Below are positions 26,416 to 56,600 of a stretch of DNA of 64,000 nucleotides, piece after piece (the stretch's first letter is position 1; each line of letters begins with the position of its first letter). The notes beneath the pieces are model-generated. The model was not told where the DNA came from, ran no database searches, and worked only from the letters and a program-made list of their open reading frames with translations. Made by a program: the position numbers and the translations under genes. This DNA comes from Mytilus galloprovincialis (lineage: Eukaryota; Mollusca; Bivalvia; Mytilida; Mytilidae), in NCBI RefSeq assembly GCF_965363235.1, contig NC_134850.1, forward strand, positions 45,132,602 to 45,196,601, written 5' to 3'.

Positions 26416-26438
26416 CTTTTTTTCACTGTTTTTTATTT

Positions 26439-29672: not shown

Positions 29673-29871
29673 GAACAAAACAGTCATAATCTATGAAACA
29701 CATTCCATAACAAACAAACAACTGGTTGCAGTGGATGGACAGCAGTATTTACCACTTCCAAATTTTCGACATGTATTTCATTTAAAGCCTCATATTCATA
29801 AAATGTTGGAAATCACATTTTAAATTTTTCTTGAGCCTCTTCTGTTTTTAAGTGGATTTTCCAAGTATAAA

Positions 29872-30097
29872 GTTATCAAAGGTACCAGGATTATAATTTA
29901 ATACCTCAGATGCGTGTTTTGTCTACATAAGACTCATCAGTGACGCTCAGATAAAAAAAGTTGTAAAGCCAAACCAGTACAAAGTTGAAGAGCATTGAGG
30001 ACCCAAAATTCCAAAATGTTGTTCCACTTATGGCTAAGGTAATCTATTCCTGGGATAAGAAAATCCTTAGTTTTTTTCGAAAAATTGAAAGTTTTGT
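29872..30097 (+). repeat. Interspersed repeat (TATCAAAGGTACCAGGATTA family), copy 1
   Basis: Begins GTTATCAAAGGTACCAGGAT and contains CATAAGACTCATCAGTGACG, AAGTTGAAGAGCATTGAGGA and AAAATCCTTAGTTTTT. The copy at 51716-51940 is colinear and in the same orientation. Reverse-strand scraps occur near 63065 (GATGAGTCTTATGTAGACGA). Confidence 0.85.
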
Positions 30098-30342
30098 AAG
30101 CAGGAAATTTATAAAAATGACCATATAATTGAAATTAATATCGGTCATTGATTTGTTGATGTACTGCAGGTGGGAGGGCGGCTGCCAAACAGTGTCCTTT
30201 CAATAGCATGAAAAACCTTTTGAATAACTTTTTAAGATGTTGTTTCCTGAGACTAAATGATGGTCAAGTTCAAGTTTCACAATTTTATTTTTTCTCGTTG
30301 TTGAGTTATTGCCCTTTCTAATATCCTTAAGTGGTACTTTTT

Positions 30343-32604
30343 AGCTCACCTGGCCCAAAGGGCCAAGTGAGCTTTTCCCATCACTTTGCGTCCGGCGTCA
30401 TCGTCCGTCGTCGTCCGTTGTCGTCGTCCGTCGTCGTTAACTTTTACAAAAATCTTCTCCTCTGAAACTGCTGGGCCAAATTAAACCAAACTTGGCCACA
30501 ATCATCATTGGGGTATCTAGTTTAAAAAATGTGTGGCGTGACCCCGCCAACCAACCAAGATGGCCGCCATGGCTAAAAATAGAACATAGGGGAAAAATGC
30601 AGTTTTTGGCTTATAACTCAAAAACCAAAGAATTTAGAGCAAATCTGACTGGGGGTAAAATTGTTTATCAGGTCAAGATCTATCTGCCCTGAAATTTTCA
30701 GATGAATCAGACAACCCGTTGTTGGGTTGCTGCCCCTGAATATGTAATTTTAAGGAAATTTTGCTGTTTTGGTTATTATCTTGAATATTATTATAGATAA
30801 AGATAAACTGTAAACAGCAATAATGTTCAGCAAAGTAAGATTTACAAATAAGTCAACATGACCGAAATGGTCAGTTGACCCCTTTAGGAGTTATTGCCCT
30901 TTATAGTCAATTTTTAACCATTTTTCGTAAATCTTAGTAATCTATTACAAAAATCTTCTCCTCTGAAACTACATGGCCAAATTAATCCAAACTTGGCCAT
31001 AATCATCTTTGGGGTATCTAGTTTAAAAAATGTGTGGTGTAACCCGGCCAAGCAACCAAGATGGCCGCCATGGCTAAAAATAGAACATAGGGGAAAAATG
31101 CAGTTTTTGGCTTATAACTCAAAAACCAAAGCATTTAGAGCAAATCTGATTGGGCTAAAATTGTTTATCAGGTCAAGATCTATCTGCCCTGAAATTTTCA
31201 GATGAATCGGACAACCTGTTGTTGGGTTGCTGCCCCTGAATTGGTAATTTTAAGGAAATTTTGCTGTTTTTGGTTATTATCTTGAATATTATTATAGATA
31301 GAGATAAACTGTAAACAGCAATAATGTTCAGCAAAGTAAGATTTACAAATAAGTCAACATGACCGAAATGGTCAGTTGACCCTTTAGGAGTTATTGCCCT
31401 TTATAGTCAATTTTTAACCATTTTTCTTAAATCTTAGTGATCTTTTACAAAAATCTTCTCCTCTGAAAATACTGGGCCAAATTAATCCAGACTTGGCCAC
31501 AATCATCATTGGGGTATCTAGTTTAAAAAATGTGTCCGGTGACCCGGCCAACTAACCAAGATGGCCGCCACGCCTAAAAATAGAACATAGGGGTAAAATG
31601 CAGTTTTTGGCTTATAACTCAACTTATGACACGGGTTATGTTCTTCTCATATATGTTATGATGGTATGATACTAAACCCCTAACGGGAAGGATTGTGCCT
31701 GATGTTCATATGATGAAATCATAATCTTTCAGTCAGTTTAATTGAAGTCTGGAGCTGGCATGTCAGTTAACTGCTAGTAGTCTGTTGTTATTTATGTATT
31801 ATTGTCATTTTGTTTATTTTCTTTGGTTACATTTTCTGACATCAGACTCGGACTTCTCTTGAACTGAATTTTAATGTGCGTATTGTTATGCGTTTACTTT
31901 TCTACATTGGTTAGAGGTATAGGGGGAGGGTTGAGATCTCACAAACATGTTTAACCCCGCCGCATTTTTGCGCCTGTCCCAAGTCAGGAGCCTCTGGCCT
32001 TTGTTAGTCTTGTATTATTTTAATTTTAGTTTCTTGTGTACAATTTGGAAATTAGTATGGCGTTCATTATCACTGGACTAGTATATATTTGTTTAGGGGC
32101 CAGCTGAAGGACGCCTCCGGGTGCGGGAATTTCTCGCTACATTGAAGACCTGTTGGTGACCCTCTGCTGTTGTTTTTTATTTGGCCGGGTTGTTGTCTCT
32201 TTGACACATTCCCCATTTCCATTCTCAATTTTATTATCTTGAATATTATTATAGATAGAGATAAATTGTAAACAGCAATAATGTACAGCAAAGTAAGACC
32301 TAAAAAGAAGTCAACATGACCAAAATGGTCAATTGACCCCTAAGGAGTTATTGCCCTTTATATAGTCATTTTTTTAACAAATTTCACAAAATTTGTAAAA
32401 TTTTACTAACATTTTCCACTGTAACTACTGGGTCAAGTTCATTAAAGATAGAGATAATTGTAAGCAGCAAGAATGTTCAGTAAAGTAAGATCTACAAACA
32501 CATCACCATCACCAAACCACGATTTTGTCTTGAATCCATCTGTGTCCTTTGTTTAGTATTCACATAGACCAAGGTGAGCGACACAGGCTCTTTAGAGCCT
32601 CTAG
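30343..32604 (+). mobile_element. Helentron-like element, copy 2 (interrupted)
   Basis: Same 5' and 3' termini as the copy at 26439-28743, in the same orientation, but with three internal unit starts (about 30448, 30950 and 31449). The third unit is broken at about 31623, after CTTATAACTCAA, and resumes at about 32231 (TTATTATCTTGAATATT). The intervening 0.6 kb is a reverse-orientation copy of the AAATTGAGAATGGAA-family repeat. Roughly 130 bp expected between the breakpoints is missing. Confidence 0.75.
31623..32230 (-). repeat. Mussel interspersed repeat inserted in Helentron-like copy 2
   Basis: Reverse complement of the family at 23085-23480: AAACATGTTTAACCCCGCCG, CCAAGTCAGGAGCCTCTGGC, TTTGTTTAGGGGCCAGCTGA and TTCCATTCTCAATTTTATTA read through it. 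It extends about 200 bp beyond the part matched at 23085, so it may be the longer copy. Confidence 0.8.
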
Positions 32605-36900: not shown

Positions 36901-37065
36901 GAATGATCCGACGTACTATAAGTTAGTAACATATAATGTATACGATCCCTTTGTTGGAGACTGGGTCAACAATCTTTGCTCTCTGATGATATTTTCAATG
37001 ACAGAGACTTCTTGGTCTTTCAGATGTATAAAGGATACATAAGAGTATTAATGTCTGCCTTTAAT

Positions 37066-40000
37066 ACCAGACACAAGTTGGTTCCTTTTTCCTTTTTCCT
37101 TTTTCGATATTCAAATTTTGAAAATATTACAAGTCCAAACTGAATTTTTTTTTTCCTTCAAAATTTTTTTTCCTCAAAATTTTTTTTTCCTCAAAATTGT
37201 TTTTTCCTCAAATTTTTTTTTTCCTCAAAATTTTTTTTTCCTCAAAATTTTTTTTCCTCAATTTTTTTTTTCATAAATTTTTATTTCCTCAAATTTTTTT
37301 TTCCTCAAATTTTTTTTTTCCTCAAAATATTTTTCCTCAAAAAGTTTTTCTTCAAATTTTTTTGTCATTTCCTTATTCGTTTTCTTTTCCTTTTTCGATT
37401 ATCATCCTTATTTGATTTCCATTTCCTTAGTCGATTTTCATTTCCTTATTTGATTTTCTTTTCCTTATTCGGTTTCTTCTTCCTTTTTCAATATTCATTT
37501 CCTTTTTCGGTTCCTATTTCCTTATTCGGTTTCTATTTCCTTATTGGATTTTCATTTCCTTATTCGATTTCCATTTCCTTATTCAATTTTCATTTCCTTA
37601 TTCGGTTTCTTTTTCCTTTTTCAATATTCATTTCCTTATTCGGTTTCTATTTCCTTATTCAGTTTCTATTTCCTTATTGGATTTTCATTTCCTTATTCGA
37701 TTTCCATTTCCTTATTCGATTTTCATTTCCTTATTCGGTTTCTTTTTCCTTTTTCAATATTCATTTCCTTTTTTGGTTTCTAGTTCCTTATTCGGTTTCT
37801 ATTTCCTTATTGGATTTTCATTTCCTTATTCAATTTCCATTTCCTTATTCGGTTTCTTTTTCCTCCTTCGGTTTCTTTTTTTTTTTCAATTTTCATTTCC
37901 TTTTTCGGTTTCTATTTCCTTATTCGGTTTCTATAACCTTTTTCGATTTTCATTTCCTTATTCGGTTTCCATTTCCTTTTTCGATATTCAAATTTTGAAA
38001 AATATTACAAGTCCAAACTGAATTTTTTTTTTCCTTCAAATTTTTTTTTCCTCAAATTTTTTTTTTCCTCAAAATTTTTTTTTCCTCAAATTTTTTTTTT
38101 CCTCAAAATTTTTTTGGCTCAAAATTTTTTTGGCTCAAAATTTTTTTTACTCATTTTTTTCCCTCAAAATTTTTTTTCCTCAAATATTTTTTTTTCCTCA
38201 AAATATTTTTCCTCAAAAAGTTTTTCTTCTAATTTTTTTGTCATTTCCTTATTCGTTTTCTTTTTCCTTTTTCGATTATCATCCTTATTCGATTTCCATT
38301 TCCTTAGTCGATTTTCACTTCCTTATTTGATTTTCTTTTCCCTATTCGGTTTCTTCTTCCTTTTTCAATATTCATTTCCTTTTTCGGTTCCTATTTCCTT
38401 ATTCGGTTTCTATTTCCTTATTGGATTTTCATTTCCTTATTCGATTTCCATTTCCTTATTCAATTTTCATTTCCTTATTCGGTTTCTTTTTCCTTTTTCA
38501 ATATTCATTTCCTTATTCGGTTTCTATTTCCTTATTCAGTTTCTATTTCCTTATTGGATTTTCATTTCCTTATTCGATTTCCATTTCCTTATTCAATTTT
38601 CATTTCCTTATTCGGTTTCTTTTTCCTTTTTCAATATTCATTTCCCTTTTTGGTTTCTAGTTCCTTATTCGGTTTCTATTTCCTTATTGGATTTTCATTT
38701 CCTTATTCAATTTCCATTTCCTTATTCGGTTTCTTTTTCCTTATTCGGTTTCTTTTTCTTTTTTCAATTTTCATTTCCTTTTTCGGTTTCTATTTCCTTA
38801 TTCGGTTTCTATAACCTTTTTCGATTTTCATTTCCTTATTCGGTTTCCATTTCCTTTTTCGATATTCAAATTTTGAAAAATATTACAAGTCCAAACTGAA
38901 TTTTTTTTTTCCTTCAAATTTTTTTTTCCTCAAATTTTTTTTTTCCTCAAAATTTTTTTTTCCTCAAATTTTTTTTTTCCTCAAAATTTTTTTGGCTCAA
39001 AATTTTTTTGGCTCAAAATTTTTTTTCCTCATTTTTTTTCCCTGAAATATTTTTTTTTCCTCAAAATATTTTTCCTCAAAAAGTTTTTCTTCTAATTTTT
39101 TTGTCATTTCCTTATTCGTTTTCTTTTTCCTTTTTCGATTATCATCCTTATTCGATTTCCATTTCCTTAGTCGATTTTCACTTCCTTATTTGATTTTCTT
39201 TTCCCTATTTGGTTTCTTCTTCCTTTTTCAATATTCATTTCCTTTTTCGGTTCCTATTTCCTTATTCGGTTTCTATTTCCTTATTGGATTTTCATTTCCT
39301 TATTCGATTTCCATTTCCTTATTCAATTTTCATTTCCTTATTCGGTTTCTTTTTCCTTTTTCAATATTCATTTCCTTATTCGGTTTCTATTTCCTTATTC
39401 AGTTTCTATTTCCTTATTGGATTTTCATTTCCTTATTCGATTTCCATTTCCTTATTCGATTTTCATTTCCTTATTCGGTTTCTTTTTCCTTTTTCAATAT
39501 TCATTTCCCTTTTTGGTTTCTAGTTCCTTATTCGGTTTCTATTTCCTTATTGGATTTTCATTTCCTTATTCAATTTCCATTTCCTTATTCGGTTTCTTTT
39601 TCCTTATTCGGTTTCTTTTTCTTTTTTCAATTTTCATTTCCTTTTTCGGTTTCTATTTCCTTATTCGGTTTCTATAACCTTTTTCGATTTTCATTTCCTT
39701 ATTCGGTTTCCATTTCCTTTTTCGATATTCAAATTTTGAAAAATATTACAAGTCCAAACTGAATTTTTTTTTTCCTTCAAATTTTTTTTTCCTCAAATTT
39801 TTTTTTTCCTCAAAATTTTTTTTTCCTCAAATTTTTTTTTTCCTCAAAATTTTTTTTCCTCAAAATTTTTTTGGCTCAAAATTTTTTTTCCTCATTTTTT
39901 TTCCCTCAAATTTTTTTTTCCTCAAATATTTTTTTTTCCTCAAAATATTTTTCCTCAAAAAGTTTTTCTTCTAATTTTTTTGTCATTTCCTTATTCGTTT

Positions 40001-40375
40001 TCTTTTTCCTTTTTCGATTATCATCCTTATTCGATTTCCATTTCCTTAGTCGATTTTCACTTCCTTATTTGATTTTCTTTTCCCTATTCGGTTTCTTCTT
40101 CCTTTTTCAATATTCATTTCCTTTTTCGGTTCCTATTTCCTTATTCGGTTTCTATTTCCTTATTGGATTTTCATTTCCTTATTCGATGTCCATTTCCTTA
40201 TTCAATTTTCATTTCCTTATTCGGTTTCTTTTTCCTTTTTCAATATTCATTTCCTTATTCGGTTTCTATTTCCTTATTCAGTTTCTATTTCCTTATTGGA
40301 TTTTCATTTCCTTATTCGATTTCCATTTCCTTATTCGATTTTCATTTCCTTATTCGGTTTCTTTTTCCTTATTCG
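37066..40375 (+). repeat. Left arm: pyrimidine-rich 19-bp minisatellite in about 870-bp higher-order units
   Basis: The basic monomer is 19 bp, TTCCTTATTCGGTTTCTAT and variants (TTGGATTTTCA, TTTTTCAATATTCAT). About 30 monomers plus a T-rich spacer of repeated TTTTTTTCCTCAAAA form a unit of roughly 860-880 bp. Unit boundaries are marked by CGATATTCAAATTTTGAAAA near 37104, 37981, 38858 and 39721. The order of monomer variants is largely preserved between units, so this is a higher-order repeat. The + strand is almost purine-free outside A residues. All three forward frames stay open because 19 is not a multiple of 3 and stop triplets are rare. Confidence 0.95.
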
Positions 40376-42140
40376 ATTATTTATAGTATAACTAATCGCC
40401 GTATTTGTATATCAAAAATAAGACAACGCGTGACCGAACGACGCATGGATTAAACGAGCTGATACGAAATATGATACGGATTTTGCCATGTATTATACGC
40501 TTTATCATATGTTTCAACAGAAGAGTATTATATGAACTGTTTTCTGTTCCATAGCACTGGGTTACCTTCAGTTCTAATTCTGAATATGAATGAACTTTAC
40601 AATATGAAAACGACGTTCGTGACGTCACATACAATATGAAAACGACGTTCGTGACGTCACATACCAAACAATGACGTCATTAAACAAAATTTTGAGAAAA
40701 AATTTTCATAAGTAAAAAAAAAATCCAAAACTGACTTTATGTAAAAAAAAAAAAAAAAAAAAAAGTAGGGGTGTGATAAAGGGTATGCGATAAAGGGTAA
40801 GGGTGTGATAAAGGGTATGCGATAAAGGGTGCGCACCAAAGTTGCGCGATACGGATTAAACAGCATGCTATTTATCAAACATGCAAAACTACTGTATTTA
40901 CTACTAAACATATGATAAAAGGATATATTGACCTGAAAGAAGTATATTGACTGAGAACGTAGTCCGAGGTCGATATACTTCTTTGGGTCGATATATCCTG
41001 TATTGACCTCATACAAAGGCTAAATTTGTTATATTATTAATTTCCGACCATATTTCTATCAAAATCGTCATTTGATTTTGTTGGAATTTTATAGATATCA
41101 TATTGTCTCCTTAACAATACAAAATATTAGTTGTTATTTCAATTGCTTTTTTTTTGTTTGTTTGTCATCTTAAGTATTTGAAGATTTTTTCCGTCAAATA
41201 ATCGATCACAGATATCATCTGTTTCAAAACGTTAAGATCATTTAACAATATCCTGAAATTCAATACATGACGTCACAAAGTTTATCGGTTTTTATATTTT
41301 CTAAAAATAACCGTGCAATATGCTTTTTGCCGTACAATATGCTTTTTGCTATCCGCCGTTTTCTCTCTACCTTTCGAAAATATAGTTTAACATGTGACTA
41401 TCCCTAAACGAATCAAATTTGTTAAAATATACAAATTAGTACCGATTATCAGGTTATCTGCATGTTGATATCGTAAAATATCAGCTGCGAGACATAATAT
41501 GAAGCTTTTTGTCGAGTGAGCGTAGCGAACGAGATCAAAAAGCCTTCATATAATGTCAAGCAGCTGATATTTTACAATATAAATATGCAGATAATCTGAT
41601 AATCGATTTATCGGGCTATATTTGCGTGTTTCGGAAGTGTTTTCTTTGTTTCACCAGCACACAAAAGATGACTTGATAAGTTCGGGTTTAAGTTATTAAC
41701 GTCGGTTCAAACATTATGACGTCGCTGATATGTCAGGGTCAAAGTTATTACGGTCGGGTCAACGTATTTGACGTCACAAAGACATGATACGGAATAATAT
41801 TATTTATCGGTCGTCCCACTGTCTATATCACTCTGTTCAGCTCTTTATATTATTCCGTATCATGTCTTTGTGACGTCAAATACGTTGACCCGGCCTTAAT
41901 AACTTTGACCCGGACATATCAGCGACGTCATAATGTTTGAACCGACGTTAATAACTTAAACCCGAACTTATCAAGTCATCTTTTGTGTGCTGGTGAAACA
42001 AAGAAAACACTTCCGAAACACGCAAATATAGCCCGATAAATCGATTATCAGATTATCTGCATATTGATATTGTAAAATATCAGCTGCTTGACATTATATG
42101 AAGGCTAGTTGATCTCGTTCGCTACGCTCACTCGACAAAT
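40376..42140. mobile_element. 1.76-kb insertion in the left arm, containing a large palindrome
   Basis: The 19-bp array breaks off near 40375 and resumes at about 42141 (TTTCCTTATTGGG). The insert holds a tandem pair of CAATATGAAAACGACGTTCG-TGACGTCACATA units (about 40598-40664), a run of GATAAAGGGT repeats (40775-40830) and the palindrome at 41508-42139. It is absent from the right arm, so it arrived after the two arms existed. Confidence 0.6.
41508..42139. repeat. Near-perfect palindrome, two 293-bp arms, 46-bp spacer
   Basis: The left arm (41508-41800) starts TTTGTCGAGTGAGCGTAGCG. The right arm (41847-42139) ends CGCTACGCTCACTCGACAAA. Only a few mismatches separate them (for example GATCAAAAAGCC against GATCAACTAGCC). 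A smaller inverted copy of the outer 60 bp (ATATCAGCTGC...GAAGC) lies just outside the left arm at about 41459-41510. Such a long arm with a short loop can extrude as a cruciform. Confidence 0.92.
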
Positions 42141-42256
42141 TTCCTTATTGGGTTTTTATTTCATTGTTATAATATTAGATTTCCATTTCCTTATTGGGTT
42201 TCTATTTCTTTATTCAGTTTCTATTTCCTTATTCAATTTTCATTTCCTTATTACTC
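42141..42256 (+). repeat. Inner remnant of the left 19-bp array
   Basis: About six degenerate monomers (TTTCCTTATTGGGTTTCTAT, TTCAGTTTCTATTTCC). This is the inner end of the left arm, cut off from the main array by the 1.76-kb insertion. Confidence 0.85.
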
Positions 42257-42361
42257 TTTATCGTTAAAAAAGGGTTCACCAATTCAGACAAAAATGAGAT
42301 CTTTCTAGTATACAATGAAAAACGAACTGGAAAGTCTATATGAGACATCAAAATGTTGTAA

Positions 42362-42486
42362 CAGTGGCGGATCCAGAAGGGGGTTTCGGGGGCTGGAACC
42401 TCCCTTTTTCGGCCGATCAATGCATTTGAATAGGGACATATAGTTGGAACCCGCTCCCTTTTTAAAATGGCTGGATCTGCCCCTGT
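42362..42486. mobile_element. MITE, CAGTGGCGGATCCAG family
   Basis: Starts CAGTGGCGGATCCAGAAGGG and ends GGCTGGATCTGCCCCTG, a decayed inverse. The interior CGGCCGATCAATGCATTTGA is the inverted counterpart of TCAAATGCATTGATCGGCC in the copy at 20307-20466, so the two are members of one family in opposite orientation. Confidence 0.75.
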
Positions 42487-45150
42487 ATAAGATGTGCATT
42501 TATAAGCTGTTTCGTAAGAACAAATGTCCCTACGTAACAATACATGATAGATTATGAAATGCCAGCGTATTCCCGAGTTTGATATTACATGCCCCGTTTT
42601 TGGAAAGATTAGAACTTGTTCTAAATCTTTACTTAGGCACCAGCCTCCCTAACAACAGGACAGGTTAGCTACTGTTACTAAATGTATTCACACTGAAATA
42701 TAGTTCCCTATGGTTCTCATGTATGTGCACATAATACACATGTAAACTGAAAAAAACTGGGTATATTATTGGATCAGTTCATTCAAGAATGTATGTCATT
42801 AAGGTGTGTTGATGTGCAGGCTTTTTAAAAAAACATGTTGATTAGGTAACTGGGTATTGATTCAACTAGTATGATTGACAACTGTCATTATCACTAAACA
42901 ATCAAAGACAAGGTGGACCTTTAATTACAATGCCCCACCTCCTAAACTGCCAATCAAATTGACCACATTACCTATCAACCTCAGTCTTACATAATTAATC
43001 AGACCACTCAATATACATATAATTCTTAATACACAAGCATTTGACCTCATAATTGAATACACAAATGTGTATATTAGATGTTTGATATTTATAAGGATGA
43101 TAGATTTATTTATTGCCAATTACTTTTGATCTACATTACATAAAGTGATTCTGTAAATTATATCTGAAAGATAAATGATTAATGGATTAACAAATGCAAG
43201 ATCTTAAAAAAAAATGAAATATGAATATAAATATGAATAAATAAAAGGTATTCAAGTAAGGCCTATAATTTACTTGATAAATTTCCAATAATCATCTGTA
43301 ATTAATCAACAATTAGATTAATTTTAGTACACTTTTTTTTTTATCAGAAATTGAATTGAAACAGTTTAAAAATTTTAAAACTTTTAATTATAACAAACCA
43401 TTGTTTATTAGTTTATTTCCCATCAATCATTATGTCTATTTTAGTAATTTGATTTTTTTTTTAGAAGTGAATATATATTTTTGCAATCAAGAAAGAATCC
43501 ACATTTCAATAAGATAAGTTATTTAATTGGTTTACGTTGAAAAAGTACATGTTCAATGCCCTGTGTTGAAAAATACTTTAAAAATTGATCAAAAGGCACT
43601 CTAAAACTTTTAATCTTCAATGCCATATAACCTCTGTTTCAACTTGGTTGGTAACATTTACTAGAAGAATTTTTGCATTTTTTACTCCTTTTACAGAAGC
43701 GACAAATGACAACCTCAGTAGCCAGGTCAATAATTTTCTATATATAGATCGGAATTCCTTCTAGTTATTTAAAAGACTCTGATTAATATCGGTTAGGGAA
43801 ATTTTTTCCGGAACTTTATATAAATAAAAAAAGAATAGGATATAGATAGCAATTATCGTGACTAAGTGATGAAAACATCGGGTTATTCAATGAAATATGA
43901 CTTATAGTGGAGGGGGCATTAAGTTTTTCCAGCTTTGTCTGTGTGTATGTCCGTACGTCAAAAAATTAGTTTTTGTTCTTTTATCTTGAGTTTGCCTCAA
44001 CAAAATGTTAAGAAACTTATACACAATCCGTATTACAACAAAATACAGATCACATTTGAATTTTGGTGGCGTCATTTATACCATTCTAGGGTTATGCGCC
44101 TTAACAAATTAAAAAAAAATACTGATTTTTGTGTTTCCGTTTTCTTTCATAAGTTTGCCCGACATCAAAATCAAGACATATACACAATACATTTGCAGTA
44201 AAGAAACAGCGTCTTTATTGCTGTTCTCTTGACAAATACATTGAGATCTTTTACACAGAGAAATCATGCCCGTTTCAATGAAAGTTGAAAGACAGTCCCT
44301 AGCACCGGTTTGAGCACAATTGTTTGCTAAAGTCAATATCGTCACAGTTGTATGTGGCATAGAAGACACACATATGCGAGGCAATATGAACAATTTAATA
44401 TGAACAGCTGGCAAAGGCTACTTGGCAAAATCTGTCATGGATTGCCCGACTATTTCACTTATACATTAGTATAAAACGAGACACATTTAAAGTGAAATAC
44501 AGGGTAAGTTACTAGAGGTTGTATGTATATATGTAATCCCTCAAAAATGAAGTTTTAGGTGGTATGTACATATGATTAACTAAGAGTGTTCCGTCCTGCC
44601 TGTCGGTTTGTCCATAGATCTGGGAAGTACTAGAACACTCCATTATGTAGGTGGTCTTTTTACCGGGCACAGAAAAAAATCCATCATACTTGTCATTTTT
44701 ACCGCGCTGAAGTACGTCCATTATTCATTATTCAAAATTCAATAATGAACTAATTCACTATTCACTATTCAATGTTAAGTAATGAATGATAAAATAGTTT
44801 AGGTTTCATTATTCAAGTTGGAGCGGTAAATAGTGAAATAAAAATAACTGACACTGTAGCTAAATTCCGTATTTTTAAATTCGTCATTTTAGTGTTATCA
44901 AACGATCATTCACATTATTATAAAAAAACACTCTGGATATCTTTAATTTCATTTATTTATTTAGTTTCGGAGGATATAAACTTATGGCCTTTTCTTAACT
45001 ATTTTTAAAAGAAATTCCATGTATGAACAACCTGAATACCAAAACATATGTATATATATATCAAAATTAAAATACTCTACGTTGTCTTTTTTTATTTTCT
45101 CTGGACCTTTGCTATTCTTCATCCTCTGATTAAAGATATAACAAGTTGAT
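42487..45150. other. Centre of the large element, no gene recognised
   Basis: AT-rich with many short frames, none above about 103 codons. Bases 43905-44150 resemble the opening of an interspersed repeat (GGGGGCATTAAGTTTTTCC, then a GTCTGTGTGTATGTCCGTACG tract). Bases 44725-44800 are a simple ATTCA/ATTAT-rich stretch. No transposase motif seen. Confidence 0.5.
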
Positions 45151-45154
45151 TGTG

Positions 45155-45745
45155 CAGCAATGACCATTAGAGGGGTCACGGAGGACCTAAATGACAAAAC
45201 ACGCGTGAAAATTAAGGAATAGCCAATTTTGAATAATGAAATGGATATTTTGAATAATTGAATGGACTGCTGTTACCCTTCAGCCCCTGAATAATAGATA
45301 AACCTTATAACTCATTCGTAAGCTTATTAAGAGAGGAGCAAAAGGTATATAGTCAATATGTTCCGCAACGCATATAAGAGGAGTACCGACGGACTTAATA
45401 TCGAAATACGCGTGAACATTGAGAAATAGCTTATTTTGTATAATGGAACGGACTGCTGCAACCCGTCAGCTCCTAATTACGATAAAAATTATACACCAAT
45501 AAAAAGCTTATTGATAGAGAAATACACTGGTAATAAACAATATGTGCGGCAATGACCATTAGAGGGGTTACGGAGGACCTAAATGCCAAAACACGCGTGA
45601 AAATTAGGAAATAGCCAATTTTGAATAATGAAATGGATATTTTGAATAATTGAATGGACTGCTGTGACACTTCAGCCCGTATTTACAGATAAACTTTATA
45701 CCTCATTCGAAAGCGTATTAAGAGAGGAACAAAAGGTATATAATC
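45155..45745. repeat. Three tandem units of about 190 bp
   Basis: Units start near 45160, 45357 and 45546. Each has an ACGGA(G/C)GGAC(C/T)TAA block, CGCGTGAA(A/C)ATT, a GAAATAGC(C/T)(A/T)ATTTTG block, then TGGACTGCTG and a CTTCAGCCC-like segment. Units 1 and 3 are more alike than either is to unit 2. A fourth, partial copy is at about 48035-48130. Confidence 0.75.
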
Positions 45746-46094
45746 AATATATTTCGCAACGTTCATAACAAACGACATTGTGTGTACTCGATTATGCTTT
45801 CAAACAACCGTTGCAAGTAGTAACCGTTGCAACGAACGGTTTGTGATTAAGATTTATTTCCCTTGAAATTGCACAGACATAAACAAGCTAAAAATAAAAT
45901 ATTTTCATATTTTTTTCAAATAATCGCCTGTTATACAGATACAACAGTTTAAATTGAATAAGTTGGCAATTTTTTGAAGTAGACTTTCAAAACCATGATA
46001 GAATAAGAGCTATTTTAACATATAAAATCGGCCTTACTGAAAATGTATATTATGATAAACATAAATACAAAACCTTTTTTAATACAAATGTTTA

Positions 46095-46225
46095 ACAAGG
46101 ACTGTGAAGGTTTTATAAATTCACAATTCTAATACAACAATTGGATGTTTTAATAGCCAGTCAAGGTCGTTGAAAACTTCTAGTTGTTGTATTACAACTG
46201 TGAAACAAGGACTGTGAAGGTCTAT
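46095..46225. repeat. Direct repeat bracketing a hairpin
   Basis: AACAAGGACTGTGAAGGT occurs at about 46095 and again at about 46204. Between them, TCTAATACAACAATT is mirrored by AGTTGTTGTATTACA, so the segment can fold. Origin unknown. Confidence 0.5.
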
Positions 46226-46329
46226 TAAATTAACCAATTGTGAGTGTCCACTTAAACATAGTACAAGATATGCGTACTGCATACGCGAAAGCTGAAACTA
46301 TGCATTTTATTAGAAACAAATACATATTT

Positions 46330-46620
46330 AAGATAGATTAAGTCCGATGCCTGGTGTTAAGAGAAAGTCATGCTCTTTGTACGTTAAAAACCCTTACAAC
46401 AACTCTTTGAGGGGTTCGTAGGTTACCTGATGCAAGGCAAAATTCATGTCCCTATCCAATATACCCTCATCTTCCTGTGGCAGTCAAAATCATCATCCCG
46501 GATGGCATCAATTATTACGAGACCTACCTATTGTATTTATTGTTAAATTGTTCTCGTCCTGAATATTCATGAAATATTTGCCACTGAACGTTGAGAAACC
46601 AACAATCAATCAATCAATAT
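46330..46620 (+). repeat. SINE with CAATCAATCAAT tail
   Basis: The body has GTGTTAAGAGAAAGTCATGC, a TTTGTACGTTAAAAACCC block and ATGCAAGGCAAAATTCATGT, colinear with the SINE at 13815-14115. The 3' end is GAATATTCATGAAATATTTG, then CCACTGAACGTTGAG and a CAATCAATCAAT run, a tail I associate with molluscan SINE/LINE pairs. Confidence 0.75.
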
Positions 46621-46934
46621 ATTTTCAGCATTTTCAAAATAAATCGTAATACACACGTATGCGATATTTAACCAATAAAGGTGGTAGGAAAGCTTCAATT
46701 AAAAGATCGTTTATAAGATATTTAAAGAATACAATGTCAGTACAATTTAATTAATAATTATTCTAGTCTTTTTAATTCTATGATGATTAATTATTTAGTC
46801 TAGGATGCATGATTTCGTTTATTATTTGTTTTTGGCTTTGAACTAGCTGTTAATAACTGGAAAAACTCTCAGATATGTACCAGGCCACGTACGCTCTGTG
46901 TTTTAGCAAGGTGTATTTCTATTTGTATCTCATG

Positions 46935-47400
46935 ATCTGAGTTAAGTCAGGCTTAAGTCTTTTTCAACTGATTTTTATAGTTCGCTCTTATGTTGTACTG
47001 TTACACCACTGTCAAAGTTACATGTTTAACGCCGCCACATTATGTATGTATATGTGCCTATCCCAAGTCAGGAAACTGTAAATTAATTCAGTGGTTCTCG
47101 TTTGTTGCTGTGTTACATATTTGTTTTTCGTTCATATTTTGTACATAAATTAGGCCGTCAGTTTTCTTGTTTGAAATTTGTTAGCACTTGACATTTCGGA
47201 GACTTTTAAAGCGGACTATGCGGGATGGGCTTTGTTCAATGTTGAAGGCCGTACGGTGGTCTATTATAGTTGTTTATTTCTGTGTCATTTGGTCTCATGT
47301 TGAGAACACATGCACTTGCCTCAGACAAGTGCCTGTGGTGGAGAGTTGTCTCATTGGCAATTATGTCATATCTTCCTTTTTATATTGGTGTTTTTCATCG
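46935..47400 (+). repeat. Mussel interspersed repeat (GAGAGTTGTCTCATTGGCAA family)
   Basis: Contains GTTTAACGCCGCCACATTAT, GCCTATCCCAAGTCAGGAAA, TAATTCAGTGGTTCTCGTTT, a GGCCGTCAGTTTTCTTGTTT block, GTTGAAGGCCGTACGGTGGT and GAGAGTTGTCTCATTGGCAA. It is the best-preserved copy in the window. The short frames at 47188-47501 belong to it. Confidence 0.75.
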
Positions 47401-48135
47401 ACGACAGAATAGGCAAATATGTCTTATTTATCAATAAATTGTCAGTTACTTTTATTTGGAATGCATTTCAAGAAAAAAGTCTCAAGTTGTTGATAAAATA
47501 AAAACATGAGAAGAGTGTCCTTTTCTCACTGAGTCAATGCAAAATCTCAGGTTTCCAATCATCAAAACAGAATCTTTTGATGAAACGACTGAAATTTATT
47601 GTTTAATATTTAATGTCTAATTTCAAAATCATGCAAGAAATAATTATACAATGAAATTAACACAAATTTGACACGTTAACGAATATAGATAAGAAACAAA
47701 AGAATAATACCAATACCAATCACAAACGCAAATCTATATTTAGAATATTAAAGTCATGTTAACTCAGTTCGTTTAAGGTCTGTTTGATTCATTCTCTTAT
47801 GTACCACTAAATAATTTCATAGGGAATCATAAACAAAGTGTTCTAGAAACGTTGAAATCGTTATCAAATAAAACGTGACGTTAGTTTTTTTGCTGATATG
47901 CATTTCAATTCTTTTGATGTTATCATGATGAATGAAATGACCTCATTCATTAAATGATTTCTCCAAAACAGCACCAACCGTTGAGTTACGTACCAACCGT
48001 ACCAGATACGTAGCAAATCGGGAAACCTCTAGTAGAAGAGTACCGACGGACTTAAATATCAAAATACGCATGAACTTTGAGAAATGGCTTATTTTGAATA
48101 ATTGAACGGACTGCCTTAACCCATCTGCTCATATT

Positions 48136-48296
48136 ATACTATACAATTATGGCCCGTTGAAAAGGTGAATATCCAAAATTGTCAACACGAGAAGGTTATT
48201 TCATTGAGGGCGCAGCCCGAAATGAAATTACTTTTAAGGGTTGACAATTTTGGATATTCATCGATTCTAAGGGGCCACAATTGTTTTATTATACCG
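48136..48296. repeat. Foldback hairpin element of about 160 bp
   Basis: The outer arms, ATACAATTATGGCCCGTTGA and the inverse of TCTAAGGGGCCACAATTGTT, enclose the inner arms GAATATCCAAAATTGTCAAC and GTTGACAATTTTGGATATTC, which match exactly. The loop contains a second small inverted repeat (ATTTCATTGAGGGC / GCCCGAAATGAAAT). Confidence 0.8.
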
Positions 48297-48848
48297 AACT
48301 AACAGTGGAAGGGCATTTCGAACACTTACTATAGTGTCTATTTTGTTAACCTTACACACAGACTGACGTTTGAAAATACATTTGTGTTAGAATTTCTCGA
48401 ATTTACAACAAAAGTAGAATCTTTTTGTAAAATATTGATGGCCCTGAAAAGGACCGTTTATAAGAGATAATATCCGCTGCTGGCACTCTCAGCTCTATTT
48501 ATATCCAATGCCTTATTTCCTCGTCTCTCGATGGGCTTCCAGTGTAATGTGAACGCTGCCATTTTGTTTATTTACGTCTGTGACGTCATTTTCATGGGAG
48601 GTAACTCAAGTACAAATCAACAAACTCGAAAGGTTATTCACCGGTGAATAAAAGGTTATTCACCGCTGGTGTAAATTTTTAGGGTTATTCGTTCTTCCTT
48701 GTAATTGAATGAAAATTAACTGAATTATTCCATGTCACGTGATAACGTTTCACCCAATAGAACTATTTGAAATATATGTAAGGTATAATAAACCAAATTA
48801 AAGCCTATTAGCAGCCGATCAAAATAGCAGCCACTTCAGTTTTTCAAA

Positions 48849-51339
48849 ATTTGAATATCGAAAAAGGAAATCGAAACCGAATAAGGAAATGAAAATCGAA
48901 AAAGGAAAAAGAAAACGAATAAGGAAACGAAAAAAAGTCTTCTGAAAAAAATTTTGAGAAAAAAAAAATTTTGAAAGAAAAAAATATTCAGTTTGGAATT
49001 GTAATATTTTTTTAAAATTTGAATATCGAAAAAGGAAATGGAAACTGAATAAGGAAATAGAAACCGAATAAGGAAATGAAAATCGAATAAGGAAAAAGAA
49101 ACCGAATAAGGAATGATAATCGAAAATGGAAAAAGAAAACGAATAAGGAAATGAAAAAAAAATTAGAAGAAAAACTTTTCGAGGAAAAATATTTTGAGGG
49201 AAAAAAAATTTTGAGGAAAAAAAAAATTTGAGGAAAAAAAATTTTGAAGGAAAAAAAAATTCAGTTTGGACTTGTAATATTTTTCAAAATTTGATATCGA
49301 AAAAGGAAATGGAAACCGAATAAGGAAATGAAAATCGAAAAAGGAAATAGAAACCGAATAAGGAAATAGAAACCGAAAAAGGTAATGAATATTGAAAAAG
49401 GAAAAAGAAACCGAATAAGGAAAAAGGAACCGAATAAGGAAAAAGAAACCGAATAAGGAAATGGAAATTGAATAAGGAAATGAAAATCCAATAAGGAAAT
49501 AGAAACCGAATAAGGAACTAGAAACCGAAAAAGGAAATGAATATTGAAAAAGGAAAAAGAAACCGAATTAGGAAATGAAAATCGAATAAGGAAATGGAAA
49601 TCGAAAAAGGAAATGAAAATCCAATTAGGAAATAGAAACTGAATAAGGAAATAGAAACCGAAAAAGGAAATGAATATTGAAAAAGGAAAAAGAAACCGAA
49701 TAAGGAAATGAAAATCGAATAAGGAAATGGAAATCGAATAAGGAAATGAAAATCCAATAAGGAAATAGAAACTGAATAAGGAAATAGAAACCGAATAAGG
49801 AAATGAATATTGAAAAAGGAAAAAGAAACCGAATAAGGAAATGAAAATTGAATAAGGAAATGAAAATCGAATAAGGAAATGAAAATCCAATAAGGAAATA
49901 GAAACCGAATAAGGAAATAGAAACCGAAAAAGGAAATGAATATTGAAAAAGGAAGAAGAAACCGAATAAGGAAAAGAAAATCGAATAAGGAAATGAAAAT
50001 CGAATAAGGAAATGGAAATCGAATAAGGATGATAATCGAAAAAGGAAAAAGAATAAGGAAATGAAAATCCAATTAGGAAATAGAAACTGAATAAGGAAAT
50101 AGAAACCGAAAAAGGAAATGAATATTGAAAAAGGAAAAAGAAACCGAATAAGGAAATGAAAATCGAATAAGGAAATGGAAATCGAATAAGGAAATGAAAA
50201 TCCAATAAGGAAATAGAAACCGAATAAGGATAGGAAAAAAAAATTTTGAGCAAAAAAAATTTTGAGCAAAAAAAATTTTGAGGAAAAAAAAAATTTGAGG
50301 AAAAAAATTTTTGAGGAAAATTTTTTTTTGAGGAAAAACAATTTGAAGCAAAAAAAAAATTCAGTTTGGACTTGTAATATTTTTCAAAATTTGAATATCG
50401 AAAAAGGAAATGGAAACCGAATAAGGAAATGAAAATCCAATAAGGAAATAGAAACCGAATAAGGAACTAGAAACCGAAAAAGGAAATGAATATTGAAAAA
50501 GGAAAAAGAAACTGAATTAGGAAATGAAAATCGAATAAGGAAATGGAAATCGAATAAGGAAACGAAAATCCAATTAGGAAATAGAAACTGAATAAGGAAA
50601 TAGAAACCGATAAAGGAAATGAATATTGAAAAAGGAAAAAGAAACCGAATAAGGAAATGAAAATCGAATAAGGAAATGGCAATCGAATAAGAAAATGAAA
50701 ATCCAATAAGGAAATAGAAACTGAATAAGGAAATAGAAACCGAATAAGGAAATGAATATTGAAAAAGGAAAAAGAAACCGAATAAGGAAATGAAAATTGA
50801 ATAAGAAAATGAAAATCGAATAAGGAAATGAAAATCCAATAAGGAAATAGAAACCGAATAAGGAAATAGAAACCGAAAAAGGAAATGAATATTGAAAAAG
50901 GAAGAAGAAACCGAATAAGGAAAAGAAAATCGAATAAGGAAATGAAAATCGAATAAGGAAATGGAAATCGAATAAGGATGATAATCGAAAAAAGAAAAAG
51001 AAAACGAATAAGGAAATGAAAAAAAAATTAGAAGAAAAACTTTTTGAGGAAAAATATTTTGAGGAAAAAAAAAAATTTGAGGAAAAAAAATTTTGAGGAA
51101 AAAAAAATTGAGGACAAATTTTTTTTGAGGAAACAAAATTTTGAGGAAAAAAAAAATTTTGAGGAAAAAAAAAATTTGAGGAAAAAAAATTTTGCGGGAA
51201 AAAAACATTTTTTAGGAAAAAATAATTTGAAGGAAAAAAAATTTTGAAGGAAGAAAAAAATCAGTTTGGACTTGTAATATTTTTCAAAATTTGAATATCG
51301 AAAAAGGAAAAAGGAAAAAGGAACCAACTTGTGTCTGGT
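48849..51339 (-). repeat. Right arm: inverted copy of the 19-bp array
   Basis: Purine-rich on the + strand: GGAAATAGAAACCGAATAA-type 19-bp monomers and TTTTGAGGAAAAAAA spacers, the reverse complement of the left arm. Unit boundary marks (TTTTCAAAATTTGAATATCG or close variants) occur near 48843, 49015, 49281, 50384 and 51283. Unit lengths vary more than in the left arm, and the first two units at the inner edge are short. It is shorter than the left arm and lacks the 1.76-kb insertion. Confidence 0.95.
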
Positions 51340-51715
51340 GCCTTTAATTGCTCTTTTGAATTCTGCTAGATATATCATAAATATAATCACAACACATTAC
51401 AAATGAATATTCTGATGAATATTTATTGATGATTTCTTTTAATTAAAATGTCATTTAACTCATAACTTACGTTAAATGTACTTCATGGCATGTACAAACA
51501 ACTAAAGATGTAACTTTTGGACTTACATCAATTCTGATGATAACTTTTCTCTCATTTACCTTATCTTATTTCTCTTTCCAATATTTCATACCTTCCTTCT
51601 AATTTATGGCTTCTTACCATATTCACACGGTCGATGAGTTCAATTAGCAAGATTAATGTCTTCAAACGGTTATTAAAATTAAAGAGCAAGAGCTCTTGAT
51701 GAGAAATTACGTAAA

Positions 51716-51940
51716 TAGTTATCAAAGGTACCAGGATTATAATTTAGTACGCCAGACGCGCGTTTCGTCTATATAAGACTCATCAGTGACGCTCAAATCA
51801 AAATATTTATAAAGCCAAACAATTACAAAGTTGAAGAGCATTGAGGATCCAAAATTCCAAAAAGTTGTGCCAAATACGGCTGAAGAAATCTATGCCTGGA
51901 ATAAGAAAATCCTTAGTTTTTCGAAAAATTTAAACTTTTG
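51716..51940 (+). repeat. Interspersed repeat (TATCAAAGGTACCAGGATTA family), copy 2
   Basis: Colinear with 29872-30097, including AGTTATCAAAGGTACCAGGA, AAGACTCATCAGTGACGCTC, AGTTGAAGAGCATTGAGGAT and AAAATCCTTAGTTTTTCG. It lies just outside the large element. Confidence 0.85.
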
Positions 51941-52754
51941 TCAACATTTTCCTTTTTTTTTTTTTAAACTTTATACAACCCATATTAGTTCGTAAATTCT
52001 TACAGTTTATAGTGGTCCTTTAAATGTTTCTTTATTCGATTACAAAAAAGTCTGATTGCTCTGGGAGTTATTTCTCCTCATTTAAGAAAGGGTCGGCATT
52101 TGAGGTACTTTATTTTCTTTTTCATGGAATGGTTATCTTTCCTATTGAACTTTTGTAATTATGGTTAACATTTGTGTATATCATAAATCCAATTAAAGAG
52201 TTTGATTAATTCGGTAATGATGAAGTTGACAGCTTATACCCCTTTAGTGATAATGACTTTGAAACTTATGGTTTTATTTTTACACAACTGTTTTATGTTT
52301 GGGATAACAAAGGACATCTCTATAATTGTTGAACAGCATATTGTCATATTTAGATTTCATATTTAATTTGCCGTTTAATTCCTTTTCTATTGAAGAAGAG
52401 ACAAAATCACATGTCTTAATTTAAAATTGGATTATGGTCAAATTTGGATATGTTTCATCATATTATAGGATATGAATGGTCTAATCGTCGTCAACTCTTC
52501 TCGCTGACGTTGGTGTCAAATACACGAATAGGTTAATTGCCATTCGACATATCGTATTTTTAAGGTACCAATAGACAAATATCGTATACACTTTATCATA
52601 ATATATATTTCAGCATCAATCGTCAAGATCCCCGTCTTTATCCTAATTTTAAAACAAATGTTAAATAACTTCTATTTTTATTTAATTTATTTCTTTGAAT
52701 AATAGTTGCGTTGTAAATGTATAACATATAGGTCAACCGGGCGGTAGTAAAGTA
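51941..52754. other. Intergenic, nothing recognised
   Basis: AT-rich, with a T-run near 51952. No gene or repeat recognised. Confidence 0.5.
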
Positions 52755-53686: not shown

Positions 53687-56600
53687 GTACATATTTTTTT
53701 GTTCGGTATCAAGACTAATTATAATACGTACACATCTGATACACCGTATACTACTAGTGGTGCGTAAACTGTCTTCCATTCGTTTGATGTGTTGAGTTTA
53801 TGATTTTGCCTTTGATTAGGGACGTCCATTTTTGAATTTTCTTCAGAGTTCAGTATTTTTGTTATTTTACTTTTTTTATTTGACAGAGTATCTGATTTAA
53901 ACACTCATGTGTTCATGTCTCATATATAAATAGCTTTCGTTGTTTTGGTTTGTGCCTCGTCGATGGACGTAGATCCATTACTGCGTTTCTGACGGAAAGT
54001 AATCATTTAGTATTTTCGTTGAATATTACAGTGTCGATTACACTACTGGTGAACAGAATCACCAGCTCAGTCGACCTTTCTTGGGTACTGAAATGATATT
54101 TGAAAATTCAGAATGTTTTAAAAGTTCAACTCTTCGATGCATTTATATATTATGTCGGTCACATTTGGCAAACCAGATGAATGCATGTTTAGGTCTCTTC
54201 ACATATATGGCTTTCAAATATTTTTGTTAGAGGTTGCATTCCTATAAATATTGACAATGTAATTTCCCATAGGAACTCCTTTTACGGCTAAAACTGTACT
54301 ACTTTTACTATGAAGTTTTGGGAATCTTATCCAAGAATTAAATGTTCATATGCACCTCAATTTTTTTCAAAGGTCAAAATATAGAGCTGTGCGGCATATT
54401 TGCAACGTTTATATGCCCTGAATTTCTCCGAGTTTAGACTAACACTACCCCTTCCCCAAATGAAAGGTTACCACAGATTTCAATGTAAACACTATGCACA
54501 TGTTTATTTACTGGTAACATTGCCAAGTTATATCTCTGTAAGATGGAACACAGAGAGCATAACTTGGAACCAGTATGTAAACAAAATTAATTTTCTATGA
54601 ATATTCAAGTTCTCCCAAAAAGAAGCGTGTTTTGAAAAAACATCTGTATTTGCAAAGTGCAACCTATAGTGTTCCGCATTTTCATACAATATGCTGACCA
54701 AAAGAAAACGAAACATTAATTTATCCTAAAAACAGCAAATTTTACCGGTACTTGGCGTTAAACTTTATTTTCCACCAACTAGAAATCCTGTAAACCAATG
54801 TGACAGTGTCAACATATAAACTTAAATCATGTATCTGGCATTGTTAAATGTTTTGTTATACTCATAGTTGCTTCATAGGGCATGTAGGTAGCTATGACGT
54901 TTTAATAGTAAAATGTGGTACAATGTATACACGCATGTCACGATATGCTTATTTTGTTGACGTTCCTGGTCCAACTTTGATTTCAGTTCATACAATACAA
55001 ATTTTATAATCCCCCTTTGTTGTTTGTTTATAACTTATGACATTTAGACTGAAATCGTAATAATTAAACTTATCTTCATATCAATCTAATGCAAACTCAC
55101 TACAACATTAAAATGTTATCTTATATCTTTAGAAAATGTTAAGACAATAAAATTTATTGTGAGGGAGTTTGGAAAAGGAGTACTTGAAAATATTATTTCG
55201 GGGGCAGACCTTTTACAGCTCCTGGAGGAAAGAAGCTGGCTCTCTGCGGAACGAGTTGAAAGGCTATCAGAACTTCTACAAACAATTGGAAGACATGACT
55301 TGGACAATAAAGTACAGATGTACGCAGATTCTGCAATCTCAAGGAATCTCTCTAATCATGGTGAGTTAGCACTTTTCGATCTATATTTGTTTTTTGATAA
55401 ATTAAGGTAGCACAATACAAAGATTTTTTCACTCCCAATCAGACAACTTTAAACTGATGTAATTCATTTCATCCTTCTTTATATTTTATAAATGAGGTAC
55501 CAAAAGAAAGAAGAAAGATTAATCTTTCAAATTGTGATAATTTCATTATGACATAATTATTACATAATTAATTATTATGTAATTAGTCGCAATATTGTGA
55601 TGTCCACACTTGAATGAATTTAGCGTCTTTGTTTTTCATAGCATCCCAAAATATTTTATAGATTCTTGTACAACACAGCTTGACCTCCAAAACTATGTCT
55701 CAGATTTCCAAAAACATCAATAGAATTTTTTTTATACCCAATTGAACTCAATGGTCTCTAATGAATTGATGTTGCAAACTTCATTGAAGATTTATGAGAG
55801 AATGAAATACAATAGGAAAAATCTGAGACACAGTTTTGGAGGTCAAACTGTGTTGTGCAAGAATCTATAAAAATTCATAGGATGCTATGAAGAACAAAGA
55901 AGCTAAATTCATTCAAGTATGGACATCACAGAATGGCAACTAATTACATAACAATTAATCATGTAACAATTATGTCATAATGAAATTATCACAATTTGAA
56001 AGATTAATCCTTCTTCTCTCTTTTGGTACCTCATTTATAAAATTTAAAGAAAGATGAGTGGAATTACATCAGTTTAAAAATGTCTGATTGGGGATGAAAA
56101 ATCTTTGTATTGTGCTACCTTAATTATAAAGTACAATGCACTTTGAAACAAAAAAATATCCATGAAAGCAATAAGAAAAACTCATCAATTAGAAAATTGC
56201 CCAAATTTACTGACTCCAAACAAAATTATTGTATCGGTTTGATAGATATATGAATTTATGATAAAATTTGTTAAAAAAAGTGTTCCTTTCTCAGATTTTT
56301 TCAAAAACTCTAACAATAAGCAATGCTTCTTAATTTTGTCTAGCAAGAGTGCTAGCTTCCGTCTTTAAAATATTGGATGGATCATTAGGATATAGCTTGA
56401 TATTCAGATTATTCTATGTATCTCTGTTCCTCTCCAATGTAATGTGTACTGTAAATAAAGGAGGAAGGCAATCTTTTAATTATTGTATTTATTCAATAAA
56501 ATAGCATCTTTAGCATCAACACTAACATTTTCTGGCTGTGCTAATAAAAAAGAACAAGAAAGTTATATGTGATAAAATTACTTGATCACGCTTTTTAAAG

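What the first reader, a model, noticed from the sequence alone, without database searches (positions are those of the whole stretch)
37057..51348. A 14.27-kb Foldback-like transposon with exact ends and a perfect 9-bp target duplication
Seen: the 20-bp ends ACCAGACACAAGTTGGTTCC and its exact complement, GCCTTTAAT directly outside both, and arms of 2.5-3.3 kb made of 19-bp tandem repeats. Known: Drosophila Foldback elements (linked to MULE/NOF transposases) have long inverted arms of short tandem repeats and 9-bp duplications. Inference: this is a giant molluscan Foldback-like element. Exact ends and an intact duplication argue for fairly recent insertion. The centre has no transposase, so mobility would need a partner in trans.
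Basis: partly seen in the sequence, partly recalled or inferred. Interest (0 to 1): 0.88.

Follow-up and report, generated by a model that had tools for sequence, protein, structure and literature searches.

The report
Mussel Foldback transposon family, giants included
The 14-kb structure is one copy of a probably recently active family of hairpin-ended jumping genes in a blue mussel, whose largest members are 70 kb or more and still look as if they jumped in one piece.

Summary
Confirmed and extended. Window 37066-51339 (14,274 bp) is one transposon: exact 20-bp inverted ends and a perfect 9-bp target duplication. The host is an edulis-type Mytilus. In the window's own genome the 20-bp end occurs 44 + 45 times, control 0 + 0: 40 head-on pairs, 9 unpaired ends. 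37 of 40 pairs carry an exact 9-bp duplication, all different; 0 of 1,560 mismatched flank pairs agree. So it belongs to a dispersed Foldback-type family. Arms (0.9-10.4 kb in 19 copies) consist of about 0.87-kb higher-order units in the window copy. The middle is a body shared between copies. No transposase was found: none of 140 MULE rows lies in any of the 40 intervals, though only 150 of 324 candidates were scored. A MULE partner in trans is inferred. Unexpected: three members of 70, 72 and 141 kb also have exact 9-bp duplications and share a 99-100% identical 1.5-kb cargo stretch; the 141-kb one looks like a head-to-tail dimer. Their cargo is almost unread.

The parts
37057..37065 (+). 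left 9-bp target site duplication GCCTTTAAT
51340..51348 (+). right 9-bp target site duplication GCCTTTAAT
37066..37102 (+). left terminus: 20-bp end ACCAGACACAAGTTGGTTCC followed by TTTTTCC repeats; first 48 bp identical in 72 of 80 paired ends, 6 of the other 8 only cut short by the fetched stretch
51303..51339 (-). right terminus, exact inverted copy of the left
37103..40378 (+). left arm: higher-order units starting at 37103, 37980, 38858 and 39721 (last one truncated)
48845..51302 (-). right arm: unit markers at 51302, 50402, 49301 and 49030, and a partial innermost marker seen in the sequence
40379..42601 (+). family body A, first part; includes palindrome 41508-42139 and a 19-bp-array fragment 42139-42262
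42602..43677 (.). 1,076-bp insertion private to this copy: alignments to 13 of 13 other fully read body-A copies break here
43678..48139 (+). family body A, main part, 93.9-99.2% identical between copies in three test stretches; no Pfam transposase in the frames scanned
48140..48783 (.). 644-bp insertion not seen in the other copies: 11 of 13 alignments break at 48139, the other 2 end earlier
48784..48844 (+). family body A, last 61 bp before the right arm

Best explanation
The structure is one non-autonomous copy of a cut-and-paste DNA transposon family of the Foldback type in a Mytilus mussel. A transposase made elsewhere recognises the identical termini, cuts the element out and inserts it with a 9-bp stagger, leaving the 9-bp duplication. 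Shown: one unit with paired inverted ends; about 40 dispersed pairs, 37 with different exact 9-bp duplications; arms inherited as a linked pair; body shared between copies. Inferred: that the transposase comes from elsewhere and is of the MULE superfamily, that the arm repeats act as repeated transposase-binding sites, that arm length changes by slippage or unequal exchange between repeats, and that activity is recent.
For: 20-bp end 44 + 45 times genome-wide, reversed-letter control 0 + 0. 40 head-on pairs: 37 with an exact 9-bp duplication, none extending to 10 bp; 2 more with one mismatch; 37 distinct 9-mers; 0 of 1,560 mismatched flank pairs agree. Over the first 900 bp the window's left arm is 99.8% identical to the right arm of copy C1_11263441 and its right arm 99.4% to that copy's left arm, while left and right differ by 4.7% and 4.2% within the two copies: the arms travel together. 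Body A is shared by 14 of 20 fully read copies, the window included. Left-arm units are 97.3-99.5% alike; left against the two long right units 93.9-95.7%; the two long right units 95.9%, so the left arm amplified on its own.
Against: No transposase-bearing copy was found. 20 of 40 paired copies were read in full; the 17 other copies below 30 kb (one half read) and almost all of the three giants were not. The MULE-domain search scored 150 of 324 candidates. The exact 20-mer search favours young copies; the search with mismatches did not complete. The 84-bp pair has no matching 9-mers. An empty site in another individual or species was not tested.
Confidence: 0.93

Rival explanations
1. Same Foldback anatomy, but moved by a transposase outside the MULE superfamily (P, hAT, Merlin or an undescribed one).
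For: 0 of 140 MULE-domain rows lie inside any of the 40 intervals; the nearest is 56 kb from an end. Galileo shows that Foldback-like arms can belong to the P superfamily (PMC3573991, passages).
Against: Exactly 9 bp in 37 of 40 pairs suits MULEs (8-11 bp, PMC6446971 passages) better than Galileo's 7 bp or the 8 bp of hAT and P (recalled). No domain search for these other families was made.
Confidence: 0.25
2. Two independent inverted satellite arrays that only look like one element.
For: The arms are satellite-like and differ in unit number.
Against: Perfect 9-bp duplication, 36 other pairs with one, linked arm pairs in a sibling copy and a shared body.
Confidence: 0.01
3. The 70-141 kb members are ordinary segmental duplications or assembly errors that happen to end at Foldback termini.
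For: Only 10 kb of one giant interior, about 6 kb at each end of two giants and 101 bp at each end of the third were read. Long inverted arms are hard to assemble (recalled), and the C8 inner junction shows no exact termini.
Against: All three have exact but different 9-bp duplications right at the termini, and the 6 bases printed beyond them differ too; a segmental duplication would copy the flanks. Full-length matches to a 1,501-bp cargo piece were seen in four places only, all inside giants, in both orientations; 40 of 6,620 candidates were scored.
Confidence: 0.2
4. Composite element like the Ising TE of Drosophila: two separate Foldback copies carrying host DNA between them.
For: Giant cargo of more than 55 kb between Foldback arms; Ising TEs moved segments of hundreds of kb between foldback elements (PMC6431247, passages).
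Against: No further exact termini inside the three giants. No full-length counterpart of the 1.5-kb cargo piece was seen outside giants, 40 of 6,620 candidates scored. The cargo edge shares 537 bp at 95% with the inner domain of body B.
Confidence: 0.2

Closest known systems
Drosophila Foldback (FB / FB-NOF) elements
   Same: Long inverted arms of short tandem repeats in higher-order units; 9-bp duplications; most copies without transposase (details recalled).
   Different: Other termini and repeats (recalled); no NOF/MULE gene found here; arms to 10.4 kb and members of 70 kb and more.
Tetris of Drosophila virilis (PMC4079207, abstract and passages)
   Same: Modular arms (flanking, tandem-repeat and inner domain), variable middle, no transposase found, 8-10 bp duplications; its authors place it in Mutator from duplication size and from earlier suggestions about foldbacks.
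   Different: TIRs up to 1,735 bp with about 220-bp repeats there; 0.9-10.4 kb with 16/17- and 19-bp repeats here.
Tm1 of root-knot nematodes (PMC3169594, abstract and passages)
   Same: Foldback-like composite ends with about 14-bp repeats, mostly 9-bp duplications, many non-autonomous copies.
   Different: A Phantom-type MULE transposase copy is known there; elements of about 1-2.6 kb in the passages seen.
Muta1 of Aedes aegypti (PMC5225508, passages)
   Same: 8-9 bp duplications, terminal motif plus subterminal tandem repeats, classed as type-2 Foldback; non-autonomous copies with heterogeneous insides.
   Different: 145-bp TIRs and 3.2 kb length; shown to move in yeast.
Galileo (PMC3573991, passages)
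   Same: Foldback-like long repetitive TIRs; arms of one copy vary independently.
   Different: P-superfamily transposase, 7-bp duplications, TIRs to about 1.26 kb.
Ising TE of Drosophila (PMC6431247, passages)
   Same: Very large DNA segments moved between foldback sequences.
   Different: Described as composite; the giants here show one exact terminus pair each.
Teratorn of fishes (PMC6431247, passages)
   Same: Giant element (41-182 kb) with short TIRs and long inverted repeats.
   Different: Carries herpesvirus genes and a piggyBac-type transposase; the 10 kb of giant read here has no frame above 93 aa, and the duplication here is 9 bp.

Membership tests
Foldback-type transposons (structural class) | long terminal inverted repeats built of short tandem repeats | tested here: met
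Foldback-type transposons (structural class) | target site duplication of about 9 bp | tested here: met
   37 of 40 pairs exact 9 bp, 2 with one mismatch, 1 (84-bp copy) not
Foldback-type transposons (structural class) | dispersed copies with the same ends at different sites | tested here: met
   40 pairs on contigs C1-C14, 37 different exact 9-mers
Foldback-type transposons (structural class) | inner inverted domain between tandem repeats and middle, as in Tetris | tested here: inconclusive
   seen in body B: inverted inner domain of about 1.4 kb around a loop of about 2 kb (2 of 20 fully read copies); not seen in the window copy's self-comparison
MULE (Mutator-like) superfamily | 8-11 bp target site duplication | tested here: met
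   range from PMC6446971 passages
MULE (Mutator-like) superfamily | MULE/DDE transposase in a copy with these ends | tested here: inconclusive
   0 of 140 MULE rows inside 40 intervals, 150 of 324 candidates scored; no Pfam transposase in the reading frames scanned; half of the paired copies not read in full
MULE (Mutator-like) superfamily | active transposition in an assay | not testable with these tools
   needs an experiment
Galileo / P superfamily | 7-bp duplication as in Galileo | tested here: not met
   9 bp here; 7 bp in PMC3573991 passage
Galileo / P superfamily | THAP/P-type transposase | not tested
   no search for THAP or P families in the genome was made
Helentron-type satellite-carrying elements of oysters | no terminal inverted repeats and no target duplication (recalled definition) | tested here: not met
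   both are present
Ising-type composite | two complete Foldback copies flanking host DNA | tested here: inconclusive
   no exact inner termini in the giants; search with mismatches did not complete

The most novel reading that the evidence does not exclude
The mussel genome holds a lineage of giant Foldback transposons of about 70 kb that move by cut-and-paste as single units, each carrying roughly 55-60 kb of fixed cargo between Foldback arms and leaving an exact 9-bp duplication. Three insertions, one of them a head-to-tail dimer, are 99-100% identical over a 1.5-kb cargo stretch, so the movement would be recent. They would be an animal counterpart of cargo-carrying giant elements, and may supply the transposase for the small copies.
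Probability: 0.5. Interest if true: 0.82.

Novelty: new variant of a known kind. Interest (0 to 1): 0.66.

Why it matters
Large DNA transposons are thought to be held back because transposition efficiency drops with length; the review seen here says above about 6 kb of cargo, while noting that cargoes of 100-200 kb have been mobilised and that Teratorn reaches 182 kb (PMC6431247, passages). A family with a median length of 13.5 kb, arms up to 10.4 kb and 70-kb members with intact duplications tests that limit in an animal. It is also a natural size series (84 bp, 3 kb, 5 kb, 14 kb, 21 kb, 70 kb, 141 kb) with the same ends, so the roles of end, arm length and cargo can be compared. Long inverted arms of like sequence at about 40 sites are likely hot spots for rearrangement (inference). 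The closest sibling arms differ by 0.2-0.6%, so presence/absence differences between mussels are likely (inference).

Tried and rejected
Two independent arrays: rejected by the pair census and arm linkage. A middle captured by this copy alone: rejected, because the middle is shared body A apart from two insertions. Transposase in the window copy: 20 of the 30 listed frames of 55 aa or more that overlap the middle were scanned; nothing reached a Pfam cut-off, best E 0.0046. The 10 not scanned are 5 arm-repeat frames and 5 frames of 55-65 aa. Other copies: one search lists 41 frames of 100 aa or more in the 20 fully read copies (frames with 15% or more Phe dropped as arm repeats); the longest has 242 aa. 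9 of these 41 were scanned (2 from the window, 7, which also held 3 frames of 80-90 aa; 6 copies). Only the 242-aa frame of copy C2_7343807 passed a cut-off (DUF6451, E 2.3e-17, plus a MADF match below cut-off); it lies in a stretch interrupting that copy's palindrome. A transposase gene split by introns could be missed by this. 10 kb of the C5 giant: longest frame 93 aa; 10 frames scanned, nothing at cut-off. Other collections: viral contigs 0 hits in three scans. A 16-mer of the end gave 18 hits in prokaryote contigs, taken as chance. A search with a translated arm stretch had 5,148 candidates, none at E 0.001.

Not achieved: census of ends with mismatches, check of the right-hand cargo edge in all giants, other transposase families, reading of the giants.
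Full report
What is there. The window's inverted ends and the perfect 9-bp flanking repeat are real and unique in the window. The element spans 37066-51339 (14,274 bp), with GCCTTTAAT at 37057-37065 and 51340-51348. Two random places in this window share a 9-mer at a rate of 130 in 2,000,000. Of 21,592 inverted 14-mer pairs in the window, 5 have direct repeats of 7 bp or more just outside, and only this one has 9.

Host. A gene next door (a death-effector domain at 55090-55410 and a long frame at 57258-59720) has its long frame 99% identical to a Mytilus edulis protein; the best hits listed from other Mytilus species are 88% and 86%. The window is contig C13:45132602-45196601 of an unnamed 1.385-Gb genome. 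I call it an edulis-type Mytilus.

Arms. Each arm begins with the 20-bp end and short TTTTTCC repeats, then repeats a unit: a 41-bp marker, a 16/17-bp T-rich array and a 19-bp array. Markers stand at 37103, 37980, 38858 and 39721 on the left and at 51302, 50402, 49301 and 49030 on the right. Left units 2 and 3 differ by 4 mismatches in 863 aligned bases plus 2 gaps. Left units are 97.3-99.5% alike, left against the two long right units 93.9-95.7%, and the two long right units 95.9%. So left-arm units multiplied after the arms had diverged, while the right arm shows no such recent growth.

Family. The exact 20-bp end occurs 44 times forward and 45 times reverse in the genome; the reversed-letter control gives 0 and 0. 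I paired each forward end with the next reverse end where they face each other: 40 pairs, 9 ends left over. Lengths run from 84 bp to 140,635 bp, median 13,511 bp. 37 of 40 pairs have an exact 9-bp duplication, none reaching 10 bp, and all 37 sequences differ. Two more pairs have one mismatch, and the 84-bp copy has four. Pairing left flanks with wrong right flanks gives 0 of 1,560 identities. 72 of 80 paired ends have the same first 48 bp; of the other 8, 6 are only cut short by the fetched stretch and 2 differ. Of the 9 unpaired ends, 4 were looked at. An exact-match search favours young copies, so this is not a full census.

One unit, not two arrays. Twenty paired copies, the window's included, were read in full. 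Over the first 900 bp of each arm, the window's left arm is closest to the right arm of C1_11263441 (99.8%) and its right arm to that copy's left arm (99.4%), although left and right differ by 4.7% and 4.2% in the two copies. The two arms were inherited together, with the element turned round. That sibling is a 4.85-kb version that keeps 1,482 bp of the middle at 99.5%. Over all 21 copies compared (two giants included), arms within a copy average 95.7% and arms between copies 94.0%.

Middle. 14 of 20 fully read copies share one body (body A), here at 40379-48844 apart from two insertions: 42602-43677 (13 of 13 other alignments break there) and 48140-48783 (11 of 13 break at 48139, the other 2 end earlier). 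Identity in three test stretches is 93.9-99.2%. Two copies carry a different body (B) with an inverted inner domain. One sibling is internally deleted, two 3.2-3.3 kb copies have almost no middle, and one 84-bp copy is little more than the two ends. Arms of the 19 copies above 3 kb run from 0.9 to 10.4 kb, median 2.5 kb.

Transposase. None was found. Outside Phe-rich arm frames, no open frame in the 20 copies exceeds 242 aa. The frames scanned from the window copy, six other copies and 10 kb of a giant hold no transposase domain. The MULE-domain search lists 140 places in the genome, several with open frames of 450 aa or more, but none inside any of the 40 intervals; the nearest is 56 kb from an end. 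Only 150 of 324 candidates were scored, and half of the paired copies were not read in full. So a source in trans is the simplest reading, and MULE is the best guess from the 9-bp duplication (8-11 bp for MULEs: PMC6446971, passages). I put MULE at about 0.7.

Giants. Pairs of 70,258, 72,110 and 140,635 bp on C5, C1 and C8 also have exact, different 9-bp duplications. A 1,501-bp stretch of C5 cargo, 13.5 kb from the left end, was matched over its full length in four places: C5 (itself), C1 (100%, reverse) and twice in C8 (99%, same strand), 70,315 bp apart. The other 91 of 95 rows are partial matches, mostly to common repeats; 40 of 6,620 first-look candidates were scored. The C5 left and C1 right cargo edges agree at 99.6% over 1,543 bp. 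The C8 element thus looks like two units in a row, 140,635 against 2 x 70,315, with no exact end at the inner junction. Arms of the C1 and C5 giants are 3.9 kb to at least 6.0 kb, and the first 900 bp of their four arms resemble each other most. The cargo edge shares 537 bp at 95% with body B. Against this: only 10 kb of one giant's interior was read beyond the end stretches, it has no frame above 93 aa, the right-hand cargo edge was not compared, no MULE row lies in a giant, and assembly error at long inverted arms cannot be excluded.

Mechanism. Shown: unit insertion with a 9-bp stagger, many sites, linked arms, growth of one arm. Inferred: transposase in trans; arm repeats as extra binding sites, as reported for Galileo (PMC4079207 and PMC3573991, passages); arm growth by slippage or unequal exchange; recent activity.

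Comparison. In structure it meets the main Foldback features tested; the inner inverted domain was seen only in body B. Tetris, Tm1, Muta1 and Galileo are the nearest described cases (passages). The MULE survey lists a molluscan MULE group without TIR or duplication data (PMC6446971). A bivalve transposon survey reports MULEs in all analysed molluscs, and the word foldback does not occur in its main text (PMC10294476, passages). In the held library, the searches foldback + Mytilus + TIR + transposon (2 papers), foldback/bivalve terms (25 of 34 listed), foldback/mollusc terms, Mytilus + Mutator-like + duplication and foldback/giant terms listed no title on such a mussel family. Most of those papers were seen only as listings, and subscription papers and Repbase are not held.

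Verdict. The finding is right. The window copy is a typical member of a Foldback family that I did not find described. The surprising part lies outside the window: the giants.

Noticed in passing
window 51749-51792 (-): Type I hammerhead ribozyme just above the Rfam cut-off (34.5 against 34 bits), about 410 bp outside the right end, within a repeat at 51711-51941 that has an 87% copy at 29865-30097.
   Followed up: no
window 26436-28540 and 30340-31622: Tandem units of about 500 bp, about 89-95% alike, in two blocks.
   Followed up: no
window 18988-20998: Array of 47-bp repeats, about 2 kb.
   Followed up: no
window 41508-42139: Near-perfect palindrome (293-bp arms, 98%) inside body A, matched in other copies too; in copy C2_7343807 it is interrupted by a stretch with a 242-aa frame bearing DUF6451.
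   Followed up: partly
window 55090-59720: Gene with a death-effector domain; its long frame is 99% identical to a M. edulis protein annotated with DED and PF20720, and 14 proteins matched, all named Mytilus.
   Followed up: partly
G000, e.g. C11:32859873, C4:43847953, C1:83048074, C7:79817190: 16 MULE-domain rows with the same score (51.4 bits), 8 of them with a 459-aa open frame: perhaps an amplified MULE family and a candidate trans source; one lies 56 kb from a family copy.
   Followed up: no
G000 C4:18312262-18312345: 84-bp copy made of little more than the two termini, without a clean 9-bp duplication.
   Followed up: partly
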